DNA of 64,000 nt from Christensenellaceae bacterium OttesenSCG-928-K19 (GTDB lineage: Bacteria > Bacillota > Clostridia > Christensenellales > Christensenellaceae), in contig JAJDHD010000006.1 of the NCBI GenBank assembly GCA_030266015.1, forward strand, positions 17,928-81,927, given 5' to 3'. Position 1 is the first letter of the stretch. The number at the start of each line of letters is the position of its first letter. Positions 4,014 to 64,000 of the stretch are shown one piece after another. A program made the translations under genes and the position numbers. The notes under the pieces were generated by a model. That model made no database searches, had not been told where the DNA came from, and saw nothing but the letters and a program-made list of their open reading frames with translations.

Positions 4014-5219
4014 TCACGACAACTCATGATAGACAATATCGGCAGCTTCTACCCATTCGTCAATCATGCTGTTCCAAAACTCCTCAGCACGCTGTTCACC
4101 AACCGTGGATAATATCTCTTCTTCTACATCCGCATATGGCACCGGCCCCGCTTCGGGTCTGGAAACCATTTTGATAATGTGATATCCATATTCAGACTCA
4201 ACCAAATCAGGCGTGACATCCCCAACATTTTTAAGAGCCAGGGAGGCTGCCTCAAAGCTTTCTACAAAGCCAGACCCTTCATATACAAAATATCCTTCCG
4301 GATAATAAGACATACCGGTATCCTCTCCATACTCTTCGATTAAAGCTTCAAAATCATCACCCTCCAACGCTTTTTTTAGCACCTCTTCTGCTCTTGGTCT
4401 GATTTCATCCAAGGCCTCCTGACGCAACGCATTCGCTTCTTCCGTCTTTCCATCCTGCTCCAACATAGAAATCTCGCTAAGCGTCTCGTCCGAGATTTTT
4501 ACCAGCACATGCTTCACGTACAGTGTGTCCTGTGCTACCAAAGAAGGTGTATAGATTGTGATCTCCTGCCCCCCATTGATGTAATTTTCAAATGCCGCCC
4601 GAGGATCTTCAACGTCTTGAGCCTCCAGCCGCTCCAGATTTTCATCATAATATAGCTTCACGTCTTTTTCCGTCATCTGGTAGCCTTCCATAATTGCAGC
4701 ATACAGCTTGTTTATGATCAGGCTTTTCTTTTGTTCTTCTATCATCGAATCCTTCGTTACACCAGACTCTTCTAAATATTCATTGTAACGTGTTCGTGTA
4801 ATTCCAGCGATATCCGCCCCCGGATCATCTTGTACTTCCGTTTCCACTTCTTCTTGCAGACTGCTCCAAAGGGAGGTAAAGGATGCTTCTACCGAATTTT
4901 CAATCTCCTGAATTTCCTCGGCGCTCAACTTTGCAATTCCCATTTCCTCAGCCTTTTGCATCACAACTTCTATCAGCACCAAATTTTCCACAACCGCGTT
5001 TTTATACTCATCGGCCTCTTCTTCCGTCATGCCTGCAGTCATCGTATCGGCCGTCAGATCATAATCGCTTAGCGATGCATTAAGCAAGTCAAGATATTCC
5101 TGTCTTGCAATAGCTACACCATTCACTTTTGCTACAACACCGCCGCCCGCGCAGCTTAAAACAGGCAAAACCACCAGTACACACAACGCCACCAAAATAA
5201 TCTTTTTATTAAATCTCAT
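4014..5219 (-). CDS. membrane-anchored parvulin-type peptidyl-prolyl isomerase (PrsA-like foldase lipoprotein)
   Basis: Extracellular folding factor, 401 aa. The N-terminus MRFNKKIILVALCVLVVLPV runs into the lipobox LSC-A-GG, so the mature protein would start with a lipid-modified Cys24. A SurA_N-like helical chaperone region follows (~30-200, acidic). A PPIC rotamase domain covers roughly 225-370, with VKHVLVKI at its start and YGYHIIKMVSR at its end. The start at 5219 is preferred because GGAGGAAAC stands before it and it opens with the signal peptide. An ATG 22 codons upstream lacks such a site. The promoter at 5257-5285 falls just upstream of the chosen start. Confidence 0.88.
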   Translation of the reverse strand: MRFNKKIILVALCVLVVLPVLSCAGGGVVAKVNGVAIARQEYLDLLNASLSDYDLTADTMTAGMTEEEADEYKNAVVENLVLIEVVMQKAEEMGIAKLSAEEIQEIENSVEASFTSLWSSLQEEVETEVQDDPGADIAGITRTRYNEYLEESGVTKDSMIEEQKKSLIINKLYAAIMEGYQMTEKDVKLYYDENLERLEAQDVEDPRAAFENYINGGQEITIYTPSLVAQDTLYVKHVLVKISDETLSEISMLEQDGKTEEANALRQEALDEIRPRAEEVLKKALEGDDFEALIEEYGEDTGMSYYPEGYFVYEGSGFVESFEAASLALKNVGDVTPDLVESEYGYHIIKMVSRPEAGPVPYADVEEEILSTVGEQRAEEFWNSMIDEWVEAADIVYHELS

Positions 5220-5256
5220 GTTTCCTCCAATGAAAATCAAATCCAATACCCATGTT

Positions 5257-5285
5257 ATTATCATCGATCTCGCCAAATATAGCAA
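5257..5285 (-). promoter_or_regulatory. promoter of the parvulin lipoprotein gene
   Basis: On the minus strand: TTGCTA (5285-5280), 17-bp spacer, GATAAT (5262-5257), about 37 bases before the ATG at 5219. Confidence 0.5.
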
Positions 5286-5384
5286 GCGGTTGACATCAAC
5301 ACCTCTATTAAAATATAGTAATCAGTATAATAGATTTTATATAGAAATGCGTAAATATTTCATAACAAACATTTTTAAAAATAA

Positions 5385-5413
5385 TTGCATTGCCCTTCTC
5401 ATTATGATAATAT
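5385..5413 (+). promoter_or_regulatory. promoter of tRNA-Leu
   Basis: TTGCAT (5385-5390), 17-bp spacer, TAATAT (5408-5413), ending 16 bases before the mature 5' end of the tRNA. Confidence 0.55.
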
Positions 5414-5429
5414 TAATTCCATCCGTTAC

Positions 5430-5518
5430 GCCGAAATGGCGGAATTGGCAGACGCACAGGACTTAAAATCCTGCGGAGGTTAAACTCCGTGTGGGTTCGA
5501 TTCCCACTTTCGGCACCA
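5430..5518 (+). tRNA. tRNA-Leu (anticodon TAA)
   Basis: 89 bases including an encoded CCA. The acceptor stem is GCCGAAA paired with TTTCGGC. The D-arm holds TGGCAGACGCA. The anticodon stem is CAGGA/TCCTG with loop CTTAAAA, giving anticodon TAA, which reads UUA. The long variable arm GCGGAGGTTAAACTCCGT marks a class II tRNA. The T-arm is GTGGG-TTCGATT-CCCAC. All parts fit tRNA-Leu. Confidence 0.97.
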
Positions 5519-5528
5519 AAAAGGAATT

Positions 5529-5556
5529 CGCATTATAGATGCGGGTTTCTTTTTTG
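5529..5556 (+). terminator. short terminator behind tRNA-Leu
   Basis: CGCAT-TATAG-ATGCG hairpin followed by GGTTTCTTTTTT. The stem has only 5 bp but is correctly placed 10 bases after the CCA end. Confidence 0.45.
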
Positions 5557-5622
5557 ATTCTGAGGTTAGTATCGAACCCACGTGGGTTCATGTGAACACA
5601 AGCCAAAGGCGCAGTGTGAACT

Positions 5623-5641
5623 TTCCCACTTTTGGCACCAA
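5623..5641 (+). repeat. partial copy of the tRNA-Leu 3' end
   Basis: TTCCCACTTTTGGCACCAA differs by one base from the tRNA-Leu 3' end at 5501-5519, and lies 122 bases downstream of it. The bases before it (GTGTGAAC) also resemble the tRNA T-arm. A duplicated tRNA 3' end is what integration at a tRNA gene leaves behind, but the ~100 bases between the copies hold no element. It is either a scar or a decayed tandem tRNA copy. The stretch 5642-5935 holds no further gene that I can see. Confidence 0.5.
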
Positions 5642-5935
5642 GAAAAAATTGATGTCGCAGGCATGGGCTTTTCCTTTATTCTAAATTCGATACAAAACAT
5701 ACGCGAATTTATGTAATTACGACAGAAATATACATTGCAGGTTTTTCTGCTTTTGGTCTAATAATTTGATTGTTCCTTTCTCTATTACTCTTTCTAAAAA
5801 TGGTCTAAATAACACAATAACAAAAAAATCGGTAATATCAGTTGTCCACCAATAAAAAATTACCCTCACTGTTTCGTAAATAGCTTAGAGTTTATATTTA
5901 TAGTACTAATCAAATTTTTCCAGGAGGTAACCCCC

Positions 5936-6181
5936 GTGTTTACAATTATCTTGACAAACGGAACACAGGTTTATGGCGACGTGATGGACAATACCGTAAA
6001 GGATTGTCCTAACACATATATGTCAACGTGTTCAAACAATGTTATTTCGCAACATCTTCGTGAAGTTAGCAATATGCATGGTTTTTTATTCATTCATGCC
6101 GATGATTCACCACGCAACCCCGCGGAGCTTCGGAATAAGGTCGTAAGCATAAACCCTCATCAAATTGAAATCATGTATTAA
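5936..6181 (+). CDS. small protein of unknown function, 81 aa
   Basis: Starts with GTG, supported by AGGAGG (5922-5927) eight bases upstream. The protein begins MFTIILTNGTQVYGDVMDNT and ends VVSINPHQIEIMY. It is short, without signal peptide or membrane segment. The alternating hydrophobic ends suggest a small beta-rich fold, superficially like an Sm-type barrel (I_LTNG..V.G at the front, I.P.QIE at the back), but this is only a resemblance. It stands alone between tRNA-Leu and a convergent gene. Confidence 0.6.
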   Translation: MFTIILTNGTQVYGDVMDNTVKDCPNTYMSTCSNNVISQHLREVSNMHGFLFIHADDSPRNPAELRNKVVSINPHQIEIMY

Positions 6182-51296: not shown

Positions 51297-51520
51297 TCTT
51301 TTGATTGAGTGCACTAGCTATATGGTCTGGAACAGAAATCAGCTTATGCTTTTGTCAAAATCAATGTGGTAGAGCATTCGTTCGCTCTATAGTCTAGATC
51401 TGTAAGTTATAAGTTTTATTTTTGAAGATAGAGTGTTTCATTTTGTATCAAACTTAAAATGATTCACTTTTATATGGCAATTAGGTATATTTGCTTATCA
51501 CCATGCGAAAGGAAAATATT

Positions 51521-52858
51521 ATGGCTGACTGGAAAGAAAAATATAAATCCAAGTTGATGACTGCCGAGGAATCCGTAACCCATATCCATTCTGGCGAGCG
51601 GGCCGTAATTGCACATGCACTAGGAGCACCCGTGCTGGTAATTGAGGCAATGGTTGCAAACAAAGAGGCTTACCGCGATGTGGAAATTGTACATATGCTC
51701 ACATTCGGCGGCACCCCTTATGTTGGCGAGGGTATGGAAAAGCATTTCCGCAACAATTCCCTGTTTGCAGGCGCAACTAACCGAAACGCAATAAACGAAG
51801 GTGCGGCAGACTTCACTCCCGCACACTTTTCAAGGATTCCAGATTTAATCCGTACAAATTTAAAACCGGACGTCCTGCTTTGCCAAGTGTCACCACCTGA
51901 TGAAAACGGCTATGTCAGCCTGGGGCTGACAAGCGATTACACCATGCCTGCGGCAACCGTTGCGCGGACAATCATCGCAGAAGTGAACCCCAAATGTCCG
52001 CGCGTATTTGGCGATACTTTTTTGCATGTATCACAGCTTGAGTGCATGGTATATACTGAGCGGGACATCATTAGCCTGCCACAAACCGAGCTTACCGACG
52101 TGGAAAAAGCAATTGGCAAAAACTGTGCAGAGCTGGTACAGGACGGCGATACATTACAGCTCGGCATTGGCGCCATCCCGGATTCTGTATTATTTTTCCT
52201 GAGGAATAAAAAGGATTTGGGAATTCATTCGGAGATTGTCGCCGATGGAGTACAATACCTGATTGAGCACGGCGTAATTAATGGCAGTAAAAAGACACAG
52301 CACGTGGGCAAGGTTGTGGCAACCGGAATCTATGGCACATCCAACTTCCACAAGTTTGTGAATAACCATCCAATGTTTGAATTGTATCCATCTGATTACA
52401 CCAACGATGTGCGTGTGATTGCTTCGCACGACAATCTTGTATCCATCAACTCATGTATCCAGGTCGATTTTGCCGGTGAGATCAGCTCCGATACCATTGG
52501 CACAAGGCAATACAGCGGCATTGGCGGGCAAGCCGATTTTGTGCGGGGCGCCAATCTCTCCAAAGGTGGCCGCTCCATTATGGCGTGCTATTCAACCGCA
52601 AAAAATGGCACCGTATCCAGAATTGTCCCTGTATTAACACCGGGGGCGGCTGTTGCCACCATGCGAGAGGATGTTGACTATTTTGTGACAGAACACGGCA
52701 TCGCGCACCTTAAAGGGCGCACGCTGTATGACCGGGCAAAACAGCTCATTGGCATAGCCCATCCCAAATTCCGTGACGAATTGCTGGATCAGGCAGAAAA
52801 GCGTTATAACCGAAAGGTTTATTTACAGGTGCCAGAGCTGGAAACAAGAGCAGAATAA
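51521..52858 (+). CDS. acetyl-CoA hydrolase/transferase family CoA-transferase (butyryl-CoA:acetate or 4-hydroxybutyrate CoA-transferase type)
   Basis: Moves CoA between acids. 445 aa. It contains QLGIGAIPDSVL, GIHSEIVADGV with the probable catalytic Glu, GIGGQADFVRGA and VTEHGIAHLKGRT. Next to bcd-etfBA, the most likely role is the last step of butyrate formation, butyryl-CoA + acetate to butyrate + acetyl-CoA. The family also holds 4-hydroxybutyrate CoA-transferases, and sequence inspection alone does not separate them. The start at 51521 has AAAGGA upstream. Confidence 0.88.
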   Translation: MADWKEKYKSKLMTAEESVTHIHSGERAVIAHALGAPVLVIEAMVANKEAYRDVEIVHMLTFGGTPYVGEGMEKHFRNNSLFAGATNRNAINEGAADFTPAHFSRIPDLIRTNLKPDVLLCQVSPPDENGYVSLGLTSDYTMPAATVARTIIAEVNPKCPRVFGDTFLHVSQLECMVYTERDIISLPQTELTDVEKAIGKNCAELVQDGDTLQLGIGAIPDSVLFFLRNKKDLGIHSEIVADGVQYLIEHGVINGSKKTQHVGKVVATGIYGTSNFHKFVNNHPMFELYPSDYTNDVRVIASHDNLVSINSCIQVDFAGEISSDTIGTRQYSGIGGQADFVRGANLSKGGRSIMACYSTAKNGTVSRIVPVLTPGAAVATMREDVDYFVTEHGIAHLKGRTLYDRAKQLIGIAHPKFRDELLDQAEKRYNRKVYLQVPELETRAE

Positions 52859-52937
52859 CCGAAATAAGATTAGATTCGCGAAACGCCTGGCTGTTCCACC
52901 TGTCTGGCGTCAATGCAAATAGAGTTTGGAGGAAAAC

Positions 52938-54077
52938 ATGGACTTCACATTAAGCAAAGAACATCAAATGCTGCAAAAACTATATCAGGATTTTGCAGAG
53001 CGGGAGGTAAAACCACTCGCGGCAGAATTGGATGAAGAAGAGCGTTTCCCGGACGAAACGCTGGTAAAGCTCCGTCAAAACGGTATGATGGGTGTTTCCT
53101 ACCCCAAAGAATATGGTGGTCAGGGTTGCGACATGCTTGCCAATGTACTGCTCATCGAAGAGATTGCCAAGGTATGCGCCACCACCGCCGTTATCTTAGC
53201 TGTGCACAGTTCTCTTGTGCCCAGCATTTTGCTGAAGCATGGCTCTGAGGAACAAAAACAAAAATACCTTACCCCACTTATGAAAGGCGATTATTTGGGT
53301 GCATTCGCCATCACCGAGGCAAACGCTGGCACAGACGCGGCAGCACAACAAACCAAGGCAGACCGCGACGGCGACTATTATATCCTGAACGGCAGCAAAT
53401 TATTTATCACTAATGCAGGGAAAGCCGACGTTTACCTTGTCCTCGCCGTAACGGACAAAACCAAGCGTTCCCGGGGTATTTCAGCATTTGTCATCGAAAA
53501 AGGCATGGAGGGATTTACCATAGGGCCAAAGGAAAAGAAGATGGGGCTGCGCGGTTCTTCCACCTGTGAAATCATTTTCGAAAATTGCAAAGTGCCAAAA
53601 GAAAACCGGATCGGTGCAGAAGGAAAAGGCTACAGCATAGCATTGGGGGCACTGGATATCGGCCGCATCGGCATTGCCGCGCAAGCGCTGGGCATTGCGG
53701 AGGGTGCGTTTGACGAAACAGTGCAATATGTGAAAGAGCGCAAGCAATTTGGCAAGCCATTAGCCGCATTCCAGAACACACAGTTTACCCTTGCTGCGAT
53801 GAAAGCGAAAATAGACGCGGCAAAGCTGCTCGTGTATCGCGCCGCACTTGCAAAGGATAACCAGAAAGTATTTTCGCTGGAGGCTGCGACCGCCAAGCTT
53901 TTTGCTTCAGAAACAGCCATGGAAGTGACTACCCAGTTCCTGCAGCTTTTCGGCGGATATGGCTATATGCGCGACTACCCTATCGAGCGGATGATGCGCG
54001 ATGCTAAAATCACCCAAATTTACGAAGGAACCAGCGAGGTACAAAAAATGGTGATTTCCTCGACTGTTTTGAAATGA
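52938..54077 (+). CDS. bcd: butyryl-CoA dehydrogenase (short-chain acyl-CoA dehydrogenase)
   Basis: FAD enzyme reducing crotonyl-CoA to butyryl-CoA with electrons from Etf. 379 aa. It has AFAITEANAGTDA (FAD/substrate site), FITNAGKADVYLV, and catalytic Glu in QIYEGTSEVQKMVI near the end. TTTGGAGGA lies before the ATG at 52938. It is followed by etfB after 10 bases. This bcd-etfB-etfA order is the electron-bifurcating unit of butyrate producers. Confidence 0.93.
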   Translation: MDFTLSKEHQMLQKLYQDFAEREVKPLAAELDEEERFPDETLVKLRQNGMMGVSYPKEYGGQGCDMLANVLLIEEIAKVCATTAVILAVHSSLVPSILLKHGSEEQKQKYLTPLMKGDYLGAFAITEANAGTDAAAQQTKADRDGDYYILNGSKLFITNAGKADVYLVLAVTDKTKRSRGISAFVIEKGMEGFTIGPKEKKMGLRGSSTCEIIFENCKVPKENRIGAEGKGYSIALGALDIGRIGIAAQALGIAEGAFDETVQYVKERKQFGKPLAAFQNTQFTLAAMKAKIDAAKLLVYRAALAKDNQKVFSLEAATAKLFASETAMEVTTQFLQLFGGYGYMRDYPIERMMRDAKITQIYEGTSEVQKMVISSTVLK

Positions 54078-54087
54078 GGAGGAAATT

Positions 54088-54873
54088 ATGTTGAATATTG
54101 TAGTATGCATCAAACAGGTACCGGATACCAATGAGGTTAAGCTGAATCCCGAAACGGGCACGCTGATTCGCGATGGCATCCCCAACATCATTAATCCGGA
54201 TGATAAATCGGCGCTGGAAGCCGCATTGCAATTGAAGGACAAGCACGGCGCAAAAGTCACCGTGATCTCCATGGGGCCAGCACAGGCAGATGATGTCTTG
54301 CGCGAGGCGCTGGCAATGGGTGCGGATGAAACATTCCTTGTGACAGATCGCGCGTTTGGCGGCGCAGACACATGGGCAACCTCTTCCACTCTTGCTTCTG
54401 CCATCAGCAAAGTACCCTACGACCTAATTATTACAGGACGTCAGGCAATTGACGGGGACACGGCCCAAGTGGGACCACAGATCGCGGAGCATCTCGGCAT
54501 TCCCAATATCAGCTATGCGGAAGCAATAGAACTGGATGGCGATTCTGTTATCGTAAAAAGGATGTATGAAGATCGTTACCATATGGTCAAGGCAAAGATG
54601 CCCTGCCTCATCACAGCGCTTGCAGAACTGGCTGAGCCTCGTTATATGACGCCGGGTGGTGTTTTTGACGCCTACCGCGAGAAAGAGGTCACCATCTGGG
54701 GACGCGACGATCTGGATGTTGCAACAGAAAACATCGGTCTTAAAGGATCGCCCACGCGCGTTGTCAAATCCTTTACCAAGGAACTAAAGGGAAAAGGAAC
54801 TGTCGTCAATCTGGATACACAGGAATCAGTGGACTTTTTGATTGAAAAACTCCAGGAAAAGTTTGTGCTGTAA
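54088..54873 (+). CDS. etfB: electron transfer flavoprotein, beta subunit
   Basis: 261 aa. It has VVCIKQVPDTNEVKLN at the N-terminus, NPDDKSALEAALQL and GRQAIDGDTAQVGPQIAEHL with the nucleotide/FAD site. In bcd-linked systems the beta-subunit FAD takes electrons from NADH and bifurcates them to ferredoxin and Bcd. Bifurcation is inferred from gene order. Confidence 0.95.
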   Translation: MLNIVVCIKQVPDTNEVKLNPETGTLIRDGIPNIINPDDKSALEAALQLKDKHGAKVTVISMGPAQADDVLREALAMGADETFLVTDRAFGGADTWATSSTLASAISKVPYDLIITGRQAIDGDTAQVGPQIAEHLGIPNISYAEAIELDGDSVIVKRMYEDRYHMVKAKMPCLITALAELAEPRYMTPGGVFDAYREKEVTIWGRDDLDVATENIGLKGSPTRVVKSFTKELKGKGTVVNLDTQESVDFLIEKLQEKFVL

Positions 54874-54884
54874 AGGGGAAAACT

Positions 54885-55895
54885 ATGAATATAGCAGAAT
54901 ATAAAGGAATTCACGTTTTTGTCCAGCAGGTAGACGGAAAAATTACTTCCGTATCTTACGAGCTGTTGGGAAAAGGAAAAGAGCTGGCACAGGATTTGGG
55001 CTGTGACGTCACTGCCGTGGTTTTAGGCAGCAACATCAGCCATTTGAGCAAGCCTCTTGCTAAATATGGCGCAGACCACATCATCATGGCAGACGACCCA
55101 GCGCTTGAGGTTTACACTACAGAACCTTATACACAGGCAATGTATGAGATTATACAGGCAAAAACGCCAGAAATTGTCCTGTGCGGTGCAACTGCCATTG
55201 GCAGGGATCTTGCCCCAAGGCTTTCCGCACGCCTACACACGGGTCTTACAGCTGACTGTACAAAGCTCGAGATCGACGCGGAAACAAAGAATCTTAGGAT
55301 GACTCGCCCAGCCTTTGGTGGCAATATTATGGCCACAATCATCTGCGCAAACCATCGCCCGCAAATGGCGACCGTGCGCCCGGGAGTTATGCAAAAAACC
55401 GAACCGGATGATAATGCGCAAGCAGACGTGGAACAATTTGCAGTAAGTAACCTAAGCGAATGCCAAAATGTCGAGATTATGGAGATCGTCAAAAAGACAG
55501 GTGCAAAAATCGATATCCAGGATGCTAAGATTCTCATATCTGGCGGGCGGGGTATGAATGCGCCGGAAAACTTTTCTTTGCTGCAACAGCTTGCGGATGA
55601 AATCGGCGGTACAGTGTCCTGCTCCAGAGCAGCAGTGGATGCTGGCTGGACAGACAAGGAACAGCAGGTGGGCCAAACCGGAAAAACAGTGCGCCCCAAT
55701 CTGTATGTTGCATGTGGCATATCCGGTGCCATCCAGCATCTTGCCGGCATGGAGGAATCGGACATCATTATCGCTATCAACAAAGATCCTGATGCGCCCA
55801 TTTTTGAGGTAGCTGATTATGGCGTTGTGGGTGATGCGCTTAAAATCGTTCCCCTGCTTGCGCAAGAGATTAAAAAGCTTTTGGCAGCGCAATAA
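54885..55895 (+). CDS. etfA: electron transfer flavoprotein, alpha subunit
   Basis: 336 aa. N-terminal alpha/beta domain (VLCGATAIGRDLAPRLSARL; LTADCTKLEID), then the FAD-binding C-terminal domain with ILISGGRGMN, GQTGKTVRPNLYVACGISG and INKDPDAPIFEVADYGVVGD. It is the last gene of the operon. Thiolase, crotonase and hydroxybutyryl-CoA dehydrogenase genes are not nearby. Confidence 0.95.
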   Translation: MNIAEYKGIHVFVQQVDGKITSVSYELLGKGKELAQDLGCDVTAVVLGSNISHLSKPLAKYGADHIIMADDPALEVYTTEPYTQAMYEIIQAKTPEIVLCGATAIGRDLAPRLSARLHTGLTADCTKLEIDAETKNLRMTRPAFGGNIMATIICANHRPQMATVRPGVMQKTEPDDNAQADVEQFAVSNLSECQNVEIMEIVKKTGAKIDIQDAKILISGGRGMNAPENFSLLQQLADEIGGTVSCSRAAVDAGWTDKEQQVGQTGKTVRPNLYVACGISGAIQHLAGMEESDIIIAINKDPDAPIFEVADYGVVGDALKIVPLLAQEIKKLLAAQ

Positions 55896-59620: not shown

Positions 59621-60328
59621 CTAGGGCCATTGCTTTTGACATGACAAAAGATAGTTTTTGTGCCATTCATAAATCTGAATCACTCTTAAGTTATTTTCTT
59701 CTTTAATTTTTTTATCTATATCGACTAACGCTTCGGTAACAATGGTTCTTATTCCCTTATCATCAGGAAAATTTAAATAATCAAAAAAATAGATTCCATC
59801 AAAATCCATTTTCATGTTGTTCATCTCCAACACATCCCTTGATTCATCGTCCAAAACTAACAGGTTTGCTATCTTTTTAACTTTTAGGTCTATCACTACC
59901 CTGGGATAACCTGCGATATTGTTTTCCAAATTATATGAATCTAATAAAGCTTTTCCCCACACTAATGTATCATCAATATATAACTTGTCATGTGTAACGC
60001 CACCTCTCGTTAAGAACCCAGCCTCAAGAAACATTCTTTGTAAAGACCCCACGATTGTCCCTATTCTATTTAAGGATATTACTGGATGATGGTCATCTGT
60101 CATATGAAAATCACTAGGTATTGCAAAAATCATATTATCTGAAAAGATTTTTATTTTAATATTGTCGCACCCCGGTACATTCATCATTATTTTTGCTTGT
60201 TCTATCGCCGCATTCATACAATTGTATATCTTATTCAAATAGTAATCTTTATCATCATTTTCTATCATTTTTTTTATTCCTAAAATGTCAATATATGCAA
60301 CAAAATAATTTTCTGTTTTTAACATCAT
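59621..60328 (-). CDS. class III nucleotide-cyclase-like protein
   Basis: 235 aa, soluble. The opening YFVAYIDILGIKKMI carries Asp14 where class III cyclases have metal ligand 1. IKIFSDNMIFAIP carries Asp64 where they have metal ligand 2. FLTRGGVTHDKLYIDDTLVWG and AGYPRVVID match a bacterial family usually annotated as hypothetical or cyclase-like, related in layout to phage-defence (Pycsar-type) cyclases. Both metal Asp are kept, so activity is plausible. AAAGGAGC precedes the ATG. Codon use is AT-rich compared with genes before 59 kb. Product and role are inference. Confidence 0.65.
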   Translation of the reverse strand: MMLKTENYFVAYIDILGIKKMIENDDKDYYLNKIYNCMNAAIEQAKIMMNVPGCDNIKIKIFSDNMIFAIPSDFHMTDDHHPVISLNRIGTIVGSLQRMFLEAGFLTRGGVTHDKLYIDDTLVWGKALLDSYNLENNIAGYPRVVIDLKVKKIANLLVLDDESRDVLEMNNMKMDFDGIYFFDYLNFPDDKGIRTIVTEALVDIDKKIKEENNLRVIQIYEWHKNYLLSCQKQWP

Positions 60329-60563: not shown

Positions 60564-60590
60564 GCAAAAAACGCATCAAAGATGCGTCTT
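60564..60590 (-). terminator. terminator of the luxE-luxC-like operon
   Basis: Minus strand ACGCATC-TTT-GATGCGT followed by TTTTTGC. It lies immediately behind the direct repeat copy R1, so R1 would be in the 3' end of the operon transcript. Confidence 0.75.
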
Positions 60591-60593
60591 TAC

Positions 60594-60673
60594 GTGGTCT
60601 GAATGGCGATACAGCATCCTTTGAAAAAAGGCTTAGCAGGAGAGATTGTCAGTAACCAAAAGCAGTATTTACT
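60594..60673. repeat. 80-bp direct repeat, copy R1
   Basis: The first 42 bases (GTGGTCTGAATGGCGATACA...) and the last 19 (ACCAAAAGCAGTATTTACT) are identical to R2. The 19 between agree at about 10 positions. It contains a CCTTT-GAAA-AAAGG hairpin. It lies about 46 bases beyond the luxC-like stop. Confidence 0.95.
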
Positions 60674-60719
60674 TATAAAGCACTCCTATATAAAATTTCT
60701 TCACAGTCGACAATAACAA

Positions 60720-62012
60720 TTAAATCATCCTCTCGATGGAAACAACACGCATATATTTTCTGAGCGGGTAATAGCCATCATGTGTGGCTCCACGATAAAT
60801 CTTTGACATATTTGCCCCATCTGTTATTCTGACTACGCCGGCCTTCAGTAATTGATTTGTAATGTGATTCCTCTCTATGTCGCCGCATAGCAACGCCGCT
60901 GTTTGCAGATGATTTTTGTTGGGCTGCAATATTTTAACAATATCGTGGCTAGGCAGCCGTTTTACCCAACAGTTCCCATGCATAATAGAAATATCCAACT
61001 TATTGTTTTCATAGGCGACGATACTGGTATGAGCGCCTTTAAATACTTTGCAGGGTGTTTCTATAGATTCCAATGATTCCGTGTAAATCTGAATGGAGTT
61101 TTGTGCTCGAATCTCCATTGGAAGTTCAAGTCGCTGGTTTTTTCGACAGTCATCGAGTATTGGAAGAAAATAATCACAAAAATCGTATATATCGTCCATA
61201 GACTCCGTATCAAGATAAATGCCTTGGCAAGAACTGCACAACAATTGATTGGTTTGCACAATATTTTGTGCAAGCCCGGTCAGGCTTTCCTTGGTCATTC
61301 CTGGTTTGGTAGCATAGGCAAAGCTGATCTTATGCCCCCATTCAATAATTTGTGTTAAGGGAGAAGTCATTTTCCGTACGGCTTGCACGGCCCTATCGCC
61401 TCCCCAGACAATAATCGCGTTTGAGACATCAATCAACTTGCCTATTGCCTTGGTATCTGTCGAAGGGTAATCAAACAGATAAATATAATCTGCCAATAGG
61501 GGTTCCATGTGTATCAATTCCTGTAGCGCGAAACCGGATAAACCGTCGTCGTCACTGGAGAGTTTCACAATATTAATATTGCCCGTTAACAAGCCTTCAA
61601 TAACGCTGTAGAGTGCAAGCCCGTATTGATTGCCGGCTGTGATATGCAACAAAACGCCCAACGGATAAAGCTTTTCCGTCACCGCAAGCGTTTCGTCGCC
61701 CGTCGTAAAATTGTTTTCTTCCATATAGCTTGGCCCCAGTTCTTTTTCCAAGCGGAATAACAAATAATCCCGGTTCAACATTGTTTTGGCTTCTTCCAGG
61801 TATTGGATGCCCTGCTTTTTTGGAATGCCCAAGGAAAGCAGAAGCTCGATATGTTCCGTGCCGATGGAGCGGGCCAACCTATCACAGGCATTTATCACAA
61901 TGGATGGGACCAAAGTTTTCTGCGACAATGTCTTTGAAGTAAACATGTCCAATGCACCGACGATTTCCGCTCGTTCTTTTTGATCAATGATTTTTCCAAA
62001 TGCCAGATTCAT
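60720..62012 (-). CDS. LuxC-like acyl-CoA/acyl-protein reductase
   Basis: Aldehyde-dehydrogenase-type enzyme that reduces an activated acyl group to aldehyde. 430 aa. It has PLGVLLHITAGNQYGLALYS (nucleotide-binding region), IIVWGGDRAVQAVR, and the nucleophile motif NQLLCSSCQG with Cys259 matching the ACSS-PQ Cys of LuxC. The C-terminus is DGYYPLRKYMRVVSIE. Its start overlaps the stop of the LuxE-like gene by 4 bases (ATGA). No luciferase (luxAB) is present, so the aldehyde must serve another purpose. Confidence 0.88.
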   Translation of the reverse strand: MNLAFGKIIDQKERAEIVGALDMFTSKTLSQKTLVPSIVINACDRLARSIGTEHIELLLSLGIPKKQGIQYLEEAKTMLNRDYLLFRLEKELGPSYMEENNFTTGDETLAVTEKLYPLGVLLHITAGNQYGLALYSVIEGLLTGNINIVKLSSDDDGLSGFALQELIHMEPLLADYIYLFDYPSTDTKAIGKLIDVSNAIIVWGGDRAVQAVRKMTSPLTQIIEWGHKISFAYATKPGMTKESLTGLAQNIVQTNQLLCSSCQGIYLDTESMDDIYDFCDYFLPILDDCRKNQRLELPMEIRAQNSIQIYTESLESIETPCKVFKGAHTSIVAYENNKLDISIMHGNCWVKRLPSHDIVKILQPNKNHLQTAALLCGDIERNHITNQLLKAGVVRITDGANMSKIYRGATHDGYYPLRKYMRVVSIERMI

Positions 62013-63124
62013 TTCAGTTCCTCCAGCATACTGCCCGCACCGGCGGCGCAGGTTTTAATGCCTTGCAATCCAGCACGTCCCAATACTTCAAAATAGGGAG
62101 CGGAGATTCCACATCCGCATTCTTCACCTCTGTGCAAAACTGCGATGTCATCCGTTAGTATGCTGGTGAGCGGCATACTCTTAAGCAGCGGCGTAATCAG
62201 ATTTAGTAGCCCCGGTTTGCCATAGGGCAAAGGCTCCAAACTATGGATATCACGGATCAATACCCTACTGTATACCGGAACATGGAAGTGATGGTTTTTA
62301 CAATCGCAGTAAGGCACATTATGCTCCACTACACCGAAAAACTCGTGAAATCGTTGTTCGGCAATTCCCAGTTGCTCTTCCGCCATTTTGTACAAAGTTT
62401 GTTTGTCAACTTTTTGTGCGGCAAATTTTTTCCATCCTCCACCCAAAAAAATCAAAGATTTTGGATGTAACGACAATCTGATCTTTTCTTGCTTTAGCTT
62501 TTCCACCAAAAAATACAGATAGGCTGGAAAACCGTTGATCCTCACGGGAAACGGCTTTTTGCTGTAGGTGATAAGCGCATTCAAAACACCTTCCTCATTT
62601 AAAACGTATTCTGTGCCCGTATCCTTTAATGCGTATTCCCGATGCAACGGAGGCGCCAGGAGGGTAGCTGCATACGCTGTTCTGACAGCACCCATATGAT
62701 TGTGCGTGCTTGGCTCGTATCCTAGCACAATATAATTTGTAGGAACAGCTGAAATCATTTTATGATAAAAAAACGTTTTGCGAAGCATATTCAATCCCAA
62801 AAGCATGGCGGATTTATCAAACCCTACCTTTACGGGGGTGCCGGAAGTTCCGGAGGTTGTGGATTGCATGTGGATTTTTTGAAGCGGCATAGAAAACAGT
62901 TCGTGTTTCTTCAAAAACAATGTGGGAATTGGCGGTAATCGATAGATGTCTTCATAGCTTTTTAATTTCTGCAACGTGAAACCCTGGGTTTCTAATAGTC
63001 TCGCATATTTTACGCAGTGCGAAATATGCCATTCTATGTTCTCGCGCACTGCCCCAAAAAATATGTCGTCAGTATTTTTACTATAAACATTTTTATGCAA
63101 AAACAGCTTTGTTCTGTTATACAT
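62009..63124 (-). CDS. LuxE-like acyl-protein synthetase
   Basis: Activates a fatty acid as acyl-AMP and holds it on a Cys for the reductase. 371 aa. The ATP motif STTSGTSGTPVKV is at 88-100. The conserved region LLNLITPLLKSMPLTSILTD is followed by HRGEECGCGISAPYFEVLGRAG. Cys359 near the C-terminus (IKTCAAGAG) stands where LuxE carries its acyl-accepting Cys. AAGGA lies before the ATG. It is the first gene of the pair and is bracketed with luxC by the direct repeats. Confidence 0.88.
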   Translation of the reverse strand: MYNRTKLFLHKNVYSKNTDDIFFGAVRENIEWHISHCVKYARLLETQGFTLQKLKSYEDIYRLPPIPTLFLKKHELFSMPLQKIHMQSTTSGTSGTPVKVGFDKSAMLLGLNMLRKTFFYHKMISAVPTNYIVLGYEPSTHNHMGAVRTAYAATLLAPPLHREYALKDTGTEYVLNEEGVLNALITYSKKPFPVRINGFPAYLYFLVEKLKQEKIRLSLHPKSLIFLGGGWKKFAAQKVDKQTLYKMAEEQLGIAEQRFHEFFGVVEHNVPYCDCKNHHFHVPVYSRVLIRDIHSLEPLPYGKPGLLNLITPLLKSMPLTSILTDDIAVLHRGEECGCGISAPYFEVLGRAGLQGIKTCAAGAGSMLEELK

Positions 63125-63180
63125 TCCATAATCCTTATTTGTATTTTATCCATGGCACGATATGAGTAAAACTATAGCAT

Positions 63181-63209
63181 ATTATAACATAATAAATTTC
63201 AAGTTGAAA
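63181..63209 (-). promoter_or_regulatory. promoter of the luxE-luxC-like operon
   Basis: Minus strand TTTCAA (63209-63204), 17-bp spacer, consensus TATAAT (63186-63181), about 57 bases before the ATG. Confidence 0.6.
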
Positions 63210-63299
63210 ATTAACCAACGGCATCCTGTCTTCTAAGATTAAGGTGCAAGTGTTATTACAGCACTTTTCCAATTAAAACTGCATAAAATAACAGAAAAC

Positions 63300-63331
63300 A
63301 CAAAAGAAATAGCCAGGTTTGACTATTTCTC
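63300..63331 (-). terminator. terminator next to repeat copy R2
   Basis: Minus strand AGAAATAG-N10-CTATTTCT followed by TTTGTG. It stands to R2 exactly as the 60564-60590 hairpin stands to R1, though the stems differ in sequence. Confidence 0.7.
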
Positions 63332-63333
63332 TT

Positions 63334-63413
63334 GTGGTCTGAATGGCGATACAGCATCCTTTGAAAAAAGGCTTAACAAAAGGATTTGCAAGCAACCAAA
63401 AGCAGTATTTACT
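63334..63413. repeat. 80-bp direct repeat, copy R2
   Basis: Second copy, same orientation as R1, 2,740 bases away, about 89% identical overall with all differences in the central 19 bases. No gene of at least 60 codons lies in 63125-63534. Confidence 0.95.
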
Positions 63414-63534: not shown

Positions 63535-64000
63535 ATGAATAGTGATAATTACCCTATACTTTCTAGAGTTTTCACCCGCTCAGTACTGAAAAGTTTTACT
63601 ACCGGAAAAACTTTTAGTGAAATGTATAATCTTGCAGTAAAACTCTTTATATCACATCCGGAAAACAATACTAACAGTGATAATTTTGAATTATTGTATC
63701 GAGTTCTAAAAGATGAATATCGTAATGAATATTATTATAAAAACACATTGTTAAACAAGTTGTTGCTCGGTGTCCATAGCGTTAATACTACTACTGCATT
63801 AACAGAATTGCCTATTGCGGAATCGAAGGCGGATTTTTTATTAATAAACGGAAAGGCTATAGTATATGAAATAAAGACTGAACTTGATAACCTTGATCGG
63901 CTTGATGGCCAAATCTCGAGCTATTACAAGGCATTTAATCATGTTTGTGTTTTATCATACGAAAACAATGCAGATGCAATATTGAGTAAATATAAAGATA
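63535..64000 (+). CDS. sce7726-like protein, PD-(D/E)XK nuclease fold (3' end outside window)
   Basis: Starts with ATG behind GGGAGGGAGGA and stays open for 155 codons to the window edge. The N-terminal ~85 residues are helical (LSRVFTRSVLKSF). Then comes the family core TALTELPIAESKADFLLING followed by AIVYEIKTELDNLDRL, in which Asp and E-I-K form a PD-(D/E)XK active site. This is the layout I know from proteins called sce7726, found in accessory and phage-related regions. A role in defence or mobile-element biology is inference. It is AT-rich like the cyclase-like gene. Confidence 0.75.
   Translation, partial: MNSDNYPILSRVFTRSVLKSFTTGKTFSEMYNLAVKLFISHPENNTNSDNFELLYRVLKDEYRNEYYYKNTLLNKLLLGVHSVNTTTALTELPIAESKADFLLINGKAIVYEIKTELDNLDRLDGQISSYYKAFNHVCVLSYENNADAILSKYKD

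What the first reader, a model, noticed from the sequence alone, without database searches (positions are those of the whole stretch)
60594..63413. LuxE-LuxC fatty-acid-reductase pair without luciferase, bracketed by 80-bp direct repeats
Two translationally coupled genes carry the key residues of the luminous-bacterial acyl-protein synthetase (STTSGTSGTP loop, C-terminal Cys359) and acyl reductase (CSSCQ, Cys259). No luxAB or luxD is present. A promoter lies at one end, a terminator at the other, and an 80-bp direct repeat on each side, so the whole looks like a self-contained cassette in an anaerobe. The aldehyde product and its use are unknown; a signal lipid, a membrane modification or an alcohol precursor are options. 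The repeats suggest the cassette entered or duplicated as a unit.
Basis: partly seen in the sequence, partly recalled or inferred. Interest (0 to 1): 0.8.

Follow-up and report, generated by a model that had tools for sequence, protein, structure and literature searches.

The report
Fatty-aldehyde genes stranded in island remnant
Two neighbouring genes predicted to make a fatty aldehyde sit, in a relative of the gut bacterium Christensenella, between two copies of an 80-base sequence that in related genomes likely marks one end of mobile DNA islands, several of them downstream of tRNA genes, so the pair is likely leftover island cargo rather than a cassette with two matching ends.

Summary
In detail: luxE (62009-63124, minus) and luxC (60720-62012, minus) match PF04443 and PF05893, overlap by 4 bp, keep both catalytic cysteines, and lie between 80-bp direct repeats R1 and R2 (89% identical, 2740 bp apart).

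The repeats are not the two ends of one cassette. A profile built from them and relatives finds 13 copies in 10 of 396 genomes of the order. All 13 stop at a tRNA-like end (ACCA in 12), next to a hairpin. Six of the 13 lie downstream of a same-strand tRNA gene (Pro or Leu). Two of those islands start with a large serine recombinase beside the tRNA; four hold one or two genes and no recombinase that I could see. So the repeat is likely the right end of an integrative-element family. R1 and R2 are two right ends in tandem: luxEC lies inside the R1 element and outside the R2 element, whose visible cargo is an sce7726-family gene.

luxEC also occurs in C. intestinihominis without bracketing repeats and has ordinary base composition and divergence, so it may be an old resident. 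Serine-recombinase islands at tRNA ends are called rare in print. Substrate and use of the aldehyde stay unknown.

The parts
62009..63124 (-). luxE-like gene, 371 aa, predicted acyl-protein synthetase (PF04443)
   Evidence: (118.9 bits), match to LuxE of 7xc6 E 1.6e-15, Cys359 in 13 of 13 aligned rows
60720..62012 (-). luxC-like gene, 430 aa, predicted acyl-protein thioester reductase (PF05893), start overlaps luxE stop
   Evidence: (184.2 bits), match to LuxC of 7xc6 E 4.3e-12, Cys259 in 13 of 13 aligned rows
60594..60673 (-). R1: likely right-end sequence of the integrative-element family; element interior is the luxEC side, outside is the 59621-60328 side
   Evidence: profile score 90.6 bits, among the sequences that built the profile; context comparison
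63334..63413 (-). R2: second likely right end, interior on the sce7726 side, outside on the luxE side
   Evidence: profile score 103 bits, among the sequences that built the profile; context comparison
60567..60591 (-). terminator-like hairpin directly outside R1, after the ...CAGACCA end; would also end the luxEC transcript
   Evidence: hairpin directly after the copy in 12 of 13 predicted folds
63299..63336 (-). terminator-like hairpin directly outside R2; would shield luxE from upstream transcription
63181..63210 (-). promoter-like site upstream of luxE (TTTTCA-18-TATAAT, TG before the second hexamer)
   Evidence: the region as a whole is not clearly above the shuffle count
63535..63999 (+). 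start of an sce7726-family gene (cut by the contig end), visible cargo of the R2 element
   Evidence: NF033832 118 bits over cut-off 70, PADLOC cll 3.3e-14
59621..60328 (-). AT-rich (31% G+C) gene of unknown family just outside R1
   Evidence: no Pfam match at 0.001, no PADLOC or NCBIfam match at 0.01; G+C

Best explanation
luxE and luxC, predicted to encode a fatty-acid reductase, lie between two same-facing copies of an 80-bp sequence that in related genomes likely forms the right end of integrative elements, so the pair is likely the remaining cargo of a decayed island in a tandem array rather than a cassette with two matching ends. Shown: 13 copies end in a tRNA-like terminus (ACCA in 12), with a hairpin directly after it in 12 of 13 predicted folds; six of 13 copies have a same-strand tRNA gene (Pro x5, Leu x1) upstream; two of those six islands have a large serine recombinase directly beside the tRNA. 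Inferred: the recombinase inserts elements at the CCA end of the tRNA gene; one element brought luxEC (or captured it) and left R1; a later element inserted on the tRNA side, left R2 and the sce7726 gene, and pushed luxEC outward; the recombinases were lost. Inferred from the enzyme families: LuxE adenylates a fatty acid with ATP, carries it on Cys359, passes it to Cys259 of LuxC, and NADPH reduces it to an aldehyde. The aldehyde's use is not known; I would bet on conversion to an alcohol or a lipid ether by unlinked host enzymes.
For: Repeat confirmed. Profile of 7 copies finds 13 copies in 10 of 396 order genomes, bits 35 to 103. ICE- or IME-like genes on the AGTAAATAC side in G003 (ParB- and TraG-like), G312b (RepA-like) and G192 (MobC-like) (labels recalled from their sequences), and a RepA-like gene at the copy in viral contig L242. 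tRNA-Pro(GGG) upstream of the copy in G002, G004 and G006 and tRNA-Pro(CGG) in G175, tRNA-Pro(GGG) 107.5 kb upstream in G003 and tRNA-Leu(CAG) 10.5 kb upstream of the second G003 copy. Distances 1754, 1616, 1727, 4567, 107547 and 10460 bp. G002 and G004 are 89% alike over the 240 bp that end at the tRNA CCA and show no similarity after it. Large serine recombinases beside the tRNA in both G003 islands, Resolvase + Recombinase + zinc-ribbon + DUF4368, 58% identical. The left end of the tRNA-Leu island resembles an inverted copy of its right end, 0 of 500 shuffles as good. Own genome: tRNA-Pro(GGG) on contig C95 carries an 8-kb element with a tyrosine integrase and a 45-bp tRNA copy. Enzyme residues.
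Against: No tRNA gene is seen beside R1 or R2: the contig ends 587 bp past R2, and the one good tRNA-Pro(GGG) match in the assembly lies on another contig with its own island. In seven of 13 copies no tRNA was found: two in the window, three near contig ends (G034, G312a, G192), and two with long reach (26 kb in G312b, 66 kb in G051). The neighbours of the G051 copy are insertion-sequence-type genes, which say nothing for an ICE. The left ends of the small islands (luxEC, G002, G004, G006) do not match right ends (shuffle p 0.33 to 0.97; the G003 tRNA-Pro island p 0.07). In G175 the copy ends CTCGCACCA but the tRNA ends CTCGACCA; in G006 the copy ends CAGATCCA and the tRNA CAGACCA. The 107-kb G003 stretch holds several recombinase-like genes, so which one made the junction is open. 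luxEC has ordinary G+C (43%; window 44%) and ordinary divergence to C. intestinihominis (LuxE 77%, LuxC 66%, putP 74%; AEC transporter 55%), which fits an old resident as well as cargo.
Confidence: 0.6

Rival explanations
1. R1-luxEC-R2 is a mobile two-gene unit of its own: a recombinase supplied in trans, or plain recombination between the 89% identical repeats, excises and inserts the 2.74-kb segment.
For: Direct repeats of 80 bp flank exactly two genes with promoter-like and terminator-like sites. Small islands of 1.6 to 4.6 kb without a recombinase that I could see recur at tRNA-Pro in G002, G004, G006 and G175. A recombinase-free mobile island with direct repeats is in print for E. coli (PMC5426353, abstract seen).
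Against: Both repeats face the same way and read as right ends; the left end after R2 shows no match to a right end (p 0.89 and 0.97). R1 and R2 differ at 9 of 80 sites, so they are not fresh copies. In the nearest relative that holds both (G002) the gene pair is not bracketed.
Confidence: 0.15
2. luxEC is ordinary chromosomal DNA of the family; the R elements inserted on either side by chance or captured it when host DNA between two insertions was left behind.
For: Ordinary G+C, divergence like that of putP, and luxEC beyond an R end and on the same strand in C. intestinihominis too.
Against: Full-length LuxE was found in only 3 of 18 genomes of the family, some of them incomplete (G000, G002, G010), and G010 has quite different neighbours. 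By geometry luxEC lies on the interior side of R1.
Confidence: 0.18
3. The 80-bp repeat is a structured RNA or a 3' untranslated element with its own terminator, and has nothing to do with insertion.
For: A hairpin with variable sequence follows the copies (12 of 13 predicted folds); a short helix can be drawn in the minus-strand RNA with one pair changed on both sides.
Against: The helix is not clearly better than shuffled columns (76 of 500 as good); no Rfam family reaches its gathering score here (two weak sub-threshold matches); copies sit beside ICE-like genes and downstream of tRNA genes, where the hairpin can be explained as a terminator behind a tRNA end.
Confidence: 0.05

Closest known systems
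Fatty-acid reductase LuxC-LuxE of luminous bacteria (PDB 7xc6)
   Same: Both proteins match by sequence; the catalytic Cys of LuxC lines up; adjacent, overlapping genes.
   Different: No luciferase or luxD beside it; far below the NCBIfam scores for the luminous enzymes (69.2 against 750 and 74.8 against 550).
Stand-alone LuxE-LuxC pairs of anaerobic Clostridia
   Same: Nine of the 19 loci that I could read in the neighbour listing have a pair of this subgroup (LuxE 41-77% identical) with no neighbour common to all nine.
   Different: Only in the window is the pair known to be bracketed by the R sequences. In G482 (one of the nine) and G698 LuxC is fused to AMP-binding-type sequence.
CIME, cis-mobilizable element (decayed ICE or IME that keeps attL and attR), as defined in PMC5704250 (passages read)
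   Same: No recombinase, beside another element's end.
   Different: Two right ends and no recognisable left end, so cis mobilisation is doubtful.
Serine-recombinase elements at tRNA genes: mycobacterial AICEs in tRNA-Leu and phage phiRSM1 in tRNA-Ser, both as described in PMC3218068 (passages read)
   Same: Recombinase class and tRNA target as inferred for the G003 islands.
   Different: Different phyla; here tRNA-Pro and tRNA-Leu, a shared 80-bp right end, and small islands without a visible recombinase at tRNA-Pro.

Membership tests
LuxE / LuxC protein families (PF04443, PF05893) | Score above the curated Pfam cut-off | tested here: met
   118.9 against 24.9 and 184.2 against 21 bits
LuxE / LuxC protein families (PF04443, PF05893) | Acyl-carrying Cys in each protein | tested here: met
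   Cys359 and Cys259 in 13 of 13 aligned rows (window plus 12 of 22 loci, chosen by me); their roles are recalled
Luminous-bacterial fatty-acid reductase (NCBIfam equivalogs) | Score above the equivalog cut-off | tested here: not met
   69.2 against 750 (NF052251), 74.8 against 550 (NF052244)
Luminous-bacterial fatty-acid reductase (NCBIfam equivalogs) | luxD and luxAB in the genome | not tested
   none between the repeats; whole genome not searched for them
Right end of the tRNA-associated element family described here | Match to the end profile, hairpin directly after it | tested here: met
   R1 90.6 and R2 103 bits, both among the sequences that built the model; hairpins
Right end of the tRNA-associated element family described here | tRNA gene at the other end of the element | tested here: inconclusive
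   contig ends 587 bp past R2; no tRNA in L006 nor elsewhere in the window except a tRNA-Leu at 5430
Serine-recombinase integrative element | Recombinase gene inside the element | tested here: not met
   only luxE and luxC between R1 and R2; so it is not itself such an element
CIME | attL and attR kept, recombinase and transfer genes lost | tested here: inconclusive
   no recombinase, right end present, left-end match absent (p 0.89 and 0.97)
CIME | Mobilised in cis by a neighbouring element | not testable with these tools
   needs excision and mating assays
Structured RNA family | Covarying helix, Rfam match | tested here: not met
   76 of 500 shuffles as good for the one helix that I named; no Rfam match of the repeats at gathering score

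The most novel reading that the evidence does not exclude
Gut Clostridia carry an undescribed family of large-serine-recombinase islands that insert at the CCA end of several tRNA genes through a shared 80-bp right end, and the same tRNA sites accumulate one- or two-gene remnants (antiphage-type genes, a surface protein, a fatty-aldehyde operon), so that tRNA-Pro works as a stacking site that keeps useful cargo after the recombinases are gone.
Probability: 0.4. Interest if true: 0.62.

Novelty: new variant of a known kind. Interest (0 to 1): 0.45.

Why it matters
It turns an odd cassette into a testable insertion system in a host-associated gut family: a right-end sequence, tRNA targets and candidate recombinases are named. 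Serine recombinases at tRNA genes are called rare (PMC3218068) or not known (PMC4383910), and site-specific ones that act at tRNA ends would be useful tools. The small remnants give a list of genes that hosts kept, among them a LuxE-LuxC aldehyde operon whose product in gut bacteria is, as far as I know, undetermined.

Tried and rejected
Transposon or insertion-sequence ends: nothing but luxE and luxC between the repeats and no inverted repeat that joins their outer edges. Plasmid or phage origin: R2 has no match in 72,556 plasmid or 50,697 phage records, and two end patterns gave 0 and 5 viral contigs, the 5 not followed up. Loose pattern with up to 2 mismatches: 29 of 396 genomes, but only G000, G002, G003 and G004 without mismatch, and the backwards control also hit many genomes. 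Exact pattern in genome contigs: 3 stretches, two Christensenella and one Sphingomonas that looks like chance and was not followed up. Structured RNA: helix not clearly above shuffles. A shared promoter upstream of the copies: none seen by eye. Shared site with pirin and nucleoside hydrolase genes: first looked like the anchor; the tRNA-Pro gene behind them explains it better. Weak copies from the first profile (E up to 1, in 15 of 18 genomes) were set aside except those in G003 and G006; two G014 hits look like unrelated terminators and a G001 hit covers only the middle. Linking contigs C95 and C84 into one island was dropped: C95 13-24 kb carries housekeeping-type genes (labels recalled). 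A motif search for recombinases in the other loci is weak evidence, since it missed the tyrosine integrase on C95 that Pfam found; the 1285-aa gene of the G175 island was not scanned. Left-end pattern in viral contigs: 1 of 8 matches (L248) has the recombinase (76% identical) beside it, the other 7 look like chance; right-end pattern: 1 of 2 (L242) is a true copy. No structure prediction was run. Literature, listings only unless said: searches (15 of 25 papers listed; 4 of 4; 8 of 194; 5 of 5) showed nothing on LuxE-LuxC in gut Clostridia; (15 of 863) nothing on Christensenella islands; others (12 of 167; 10 of 111; 10 of 57; 3 of 3; 12 of 73) on mobile elements, led to PMC5704250, PMC3218068, PMC4383910 and PMC11476347 (passages read) and PMC5426353 (abstract). 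The listing was cut: L151, most of L152 and part of L150 were not seen. One search was also cut; L025 and L026 were listed again.
Full report
What is there. The window lies on contig C84 of a 2.63-Mb, 72% complete assembly and ends with that contig. The pair luxE (62009-63124) and luxC (60720-62012) is on the minus strand with a 4-bp overlap. Both match Pfam well, and the only solved relatives found are chains of 7xc6. They score far below the NCBIfam models for the luminous enzymes.

What the repeat is. DNA search of 18 family genomes found single copies in G002, G003 and G004 and two in the window genome. A sequence-only profile added diverged copies in G003 and G006, which I checked by eye. 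A second profile from seven copies, run over 396 genomes of the order, gave 13 copies in 10 genomes at E up to 0.01, six of them in other families. The seven founding copies match by construction; the six new ones score 35 to 63 bits.

Anatomy of the 13 copies. Read on the window's minus strand, each copy runs from about AGTAAATAC to a tRNA-like end (ACCA in 12, ATCCA in G006). In 12 of 13 the predicted fold of the next 75 nt opens with a hairpin; in G002 the fold pairs the bases otherwise although a hairpin can be read there. In 11 of 13 a run of at least four T lies in or just after the 3' side of that hairpin; in G002 and the second G003 copy a second hairpin carries the T run. On the AGTAAATAC side lie ICE- or IME-like genes in G003, G312b and G192 (labels recalled), insertion-sequence-type genes in G051, or one or two cargo genes: DUF5343 plus TIGR02391 in G002 (both with PADLOC matches), SLFN_AlbA_2 in G006, a protein without a family in G004, a 1285-aa protein in G175 (not scanned), luxEC at R1, and the sce7726-family gene at R2. 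The second G003 copy has a 751-aa protein without a clear family beside it.

The other end. tRNA genes of the same strand lie upstream of six copies: tRNA-Pro(GGG) in G002, G004, G006 (1754, 1616, 1727 bp) and G003 (107.5 kb), tRNA-Pro(CGG) in G175 (4.6 kb), tRNA-Leu(CAG), the last of a tRNA row, for the second G003 copy (10.5 kb). Seven copies have none: R1 is preceded by R2; R2, G034 and G312a are 0.6, 0.3 and about 4.6 kb from a contig end; G192 shows none in 11 kb to its contig end, G312b none in 26 kb and G051 none in 66 kb. G002 and G004 are 89% identical over the 240 bp that end at the tRNA CCA, without similarity afterwards, which marks a precise junction. The CAGACCA that ends R1 and R2 is also the 3' end of tRNA-Pro(GGG) in G002 and in the window's own genome. 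The match between copy end and tRNA end is imperfect in G175 and G006.

The enzyme. In both G003 islands the first gene after the tRNA is a large serine recombinase, the two 58% identical. The left end of the tRNA-Leu island resembles its right end as an inverted copy (0 of 500 shuffles as good); for the tRNA-Pro island this is weak (p 0.07), and for four small islands, luxEC among them, it is absent (p 0.33 to 0.97). A viral contig (L248) has the same left-end motif beside a 76% identical recombinase, without a recognised tRNA. So the recombinase link rests on two islands plus one contig and is inferred; the larger G003 island holds further recombinase-like genes.

What follows for the window. 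If the element body lies on the AGTAAATAC side, R2 closes an element that extends off the contig and includes the sce7726 gene, and R1 closes an element whose only remaining content is luxEC. This is a tandem of right ends. Tandem stacking with decayed elements is described for integrative elements generally (PMC5704250, passages). R2 is nearer to the Christensenella copies than R1, whose middle has changed, so the two are not a fresh duplication. The window itself shows no tRNA beside the array; that part is inference.

How old is luxEC. LuxE is 77% and LuxC 66% identical to C. intestinihominis, while putP is 74% and the nearest AEC transporter 55%. luxEC has 43% G+C, near the window's 44%, whereas the sce7726 end and the 59621 gene have 30% and 31%. 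Full-length LuxE occurs in 3 of 18 family genomes and, at E up to 1e-15, in 28 of 393 sampled genomes of the class, the window's included. In C. intestinihominis luxEC stands 5.6 kb outside the R copy, same strand, without a second copy. The pair thus looks like a long-kept accessory trait around the tRNA-Pro zone.

What the pair does. Of the 22 loci in the neighbour comparison, I could read 19 fully. Nine (G002 and G010 included) hold a pair of the window's subgroup (LuxE 41-77%) with no neighbour common to all nine, though loci of one genus share some flanking genes. Of the more distant ones (LuxE 25-28%), most sit in operons with a ligase-like protein of one cluster, some with a carrier-like protein or sugar-type genes (labels recalled). 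In G482 and G698 LuxC is fused to AMP-binding-type sequence. The reaction order acyl-AMP, acyl-LuxE, acyl-LuxC, aldehyde is established knowledge of the family, not tested here. The use of the aldehyde is open.

Novelty. A review of mobilizable elements names tRNA ends as targets of tyrosine recombinases, and gene disruption for serine recombinases, in the passages that I read (PMC5704250); Islander states that serine recombinases are not known to target tRNA genes (PMC4383910); a survey of actinobacterial elements calls it rare and gives two cases (PMC3218068). The listings of my searches showed no clostridial case; they cover open-access papers only and were capped.

Noticed in passing
L214 (G000:C95:52000-71000), tRNA-Pro(GGG) at C95:66987-67063: The window genome's tRNA-Pro(GGG) carries an 8-kb element with a tyrosine integrase and mobilisation-type genes (the latter label recalled), closed by a 45-bp copy of the tRNA 3' end that is followed by the left-end motif of the serine-recombinase islands.
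   Followed up: partly
L160:6485-8950 and L162:6750-9389: LuxC fused to AMP-binding-type sequence in two Clostridia genomes (G482, G698), with LuxE next door; G482 also has a MatE transporter and an acetyltransferase-like gene downstream.
   Followed up: partly
L183 (G006:C2), 4273-6001: A 1.7-kb stretch from tRNA-Pro(GGG) to an R-type end holds one SLFN_AlbA_2 plus HATPase_c_4 gene.
   Followed up: partly
G003:C1:44490-152113 (L217-L222): A 107-kb region between tRNA-Pro and an R-type end with several serine-recombinase-like genes, conjugation-type genes and a gene that looks like a ribosome-protection tetracycline resistance gene (labels recalled, except the tRNA-side recombinase).
   Followed up: no
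L248 (IMGVR_UViG_3300028494_000060): A viral-collection contig with the left-end motif after ...CCGCACCA and a recombinase 76% identical to that of the G003 tRNA-Leu island, next to a second recombinase-like gene.
   Followed up: partly
window 51491-55895: Row of genes that look like a CoA-transferase, an acyl-CoA dehydrogenase and two electron-transfer flavoprotein subunits (labels recalled from sequence), in the left part of the same contig.
   Followed up: no
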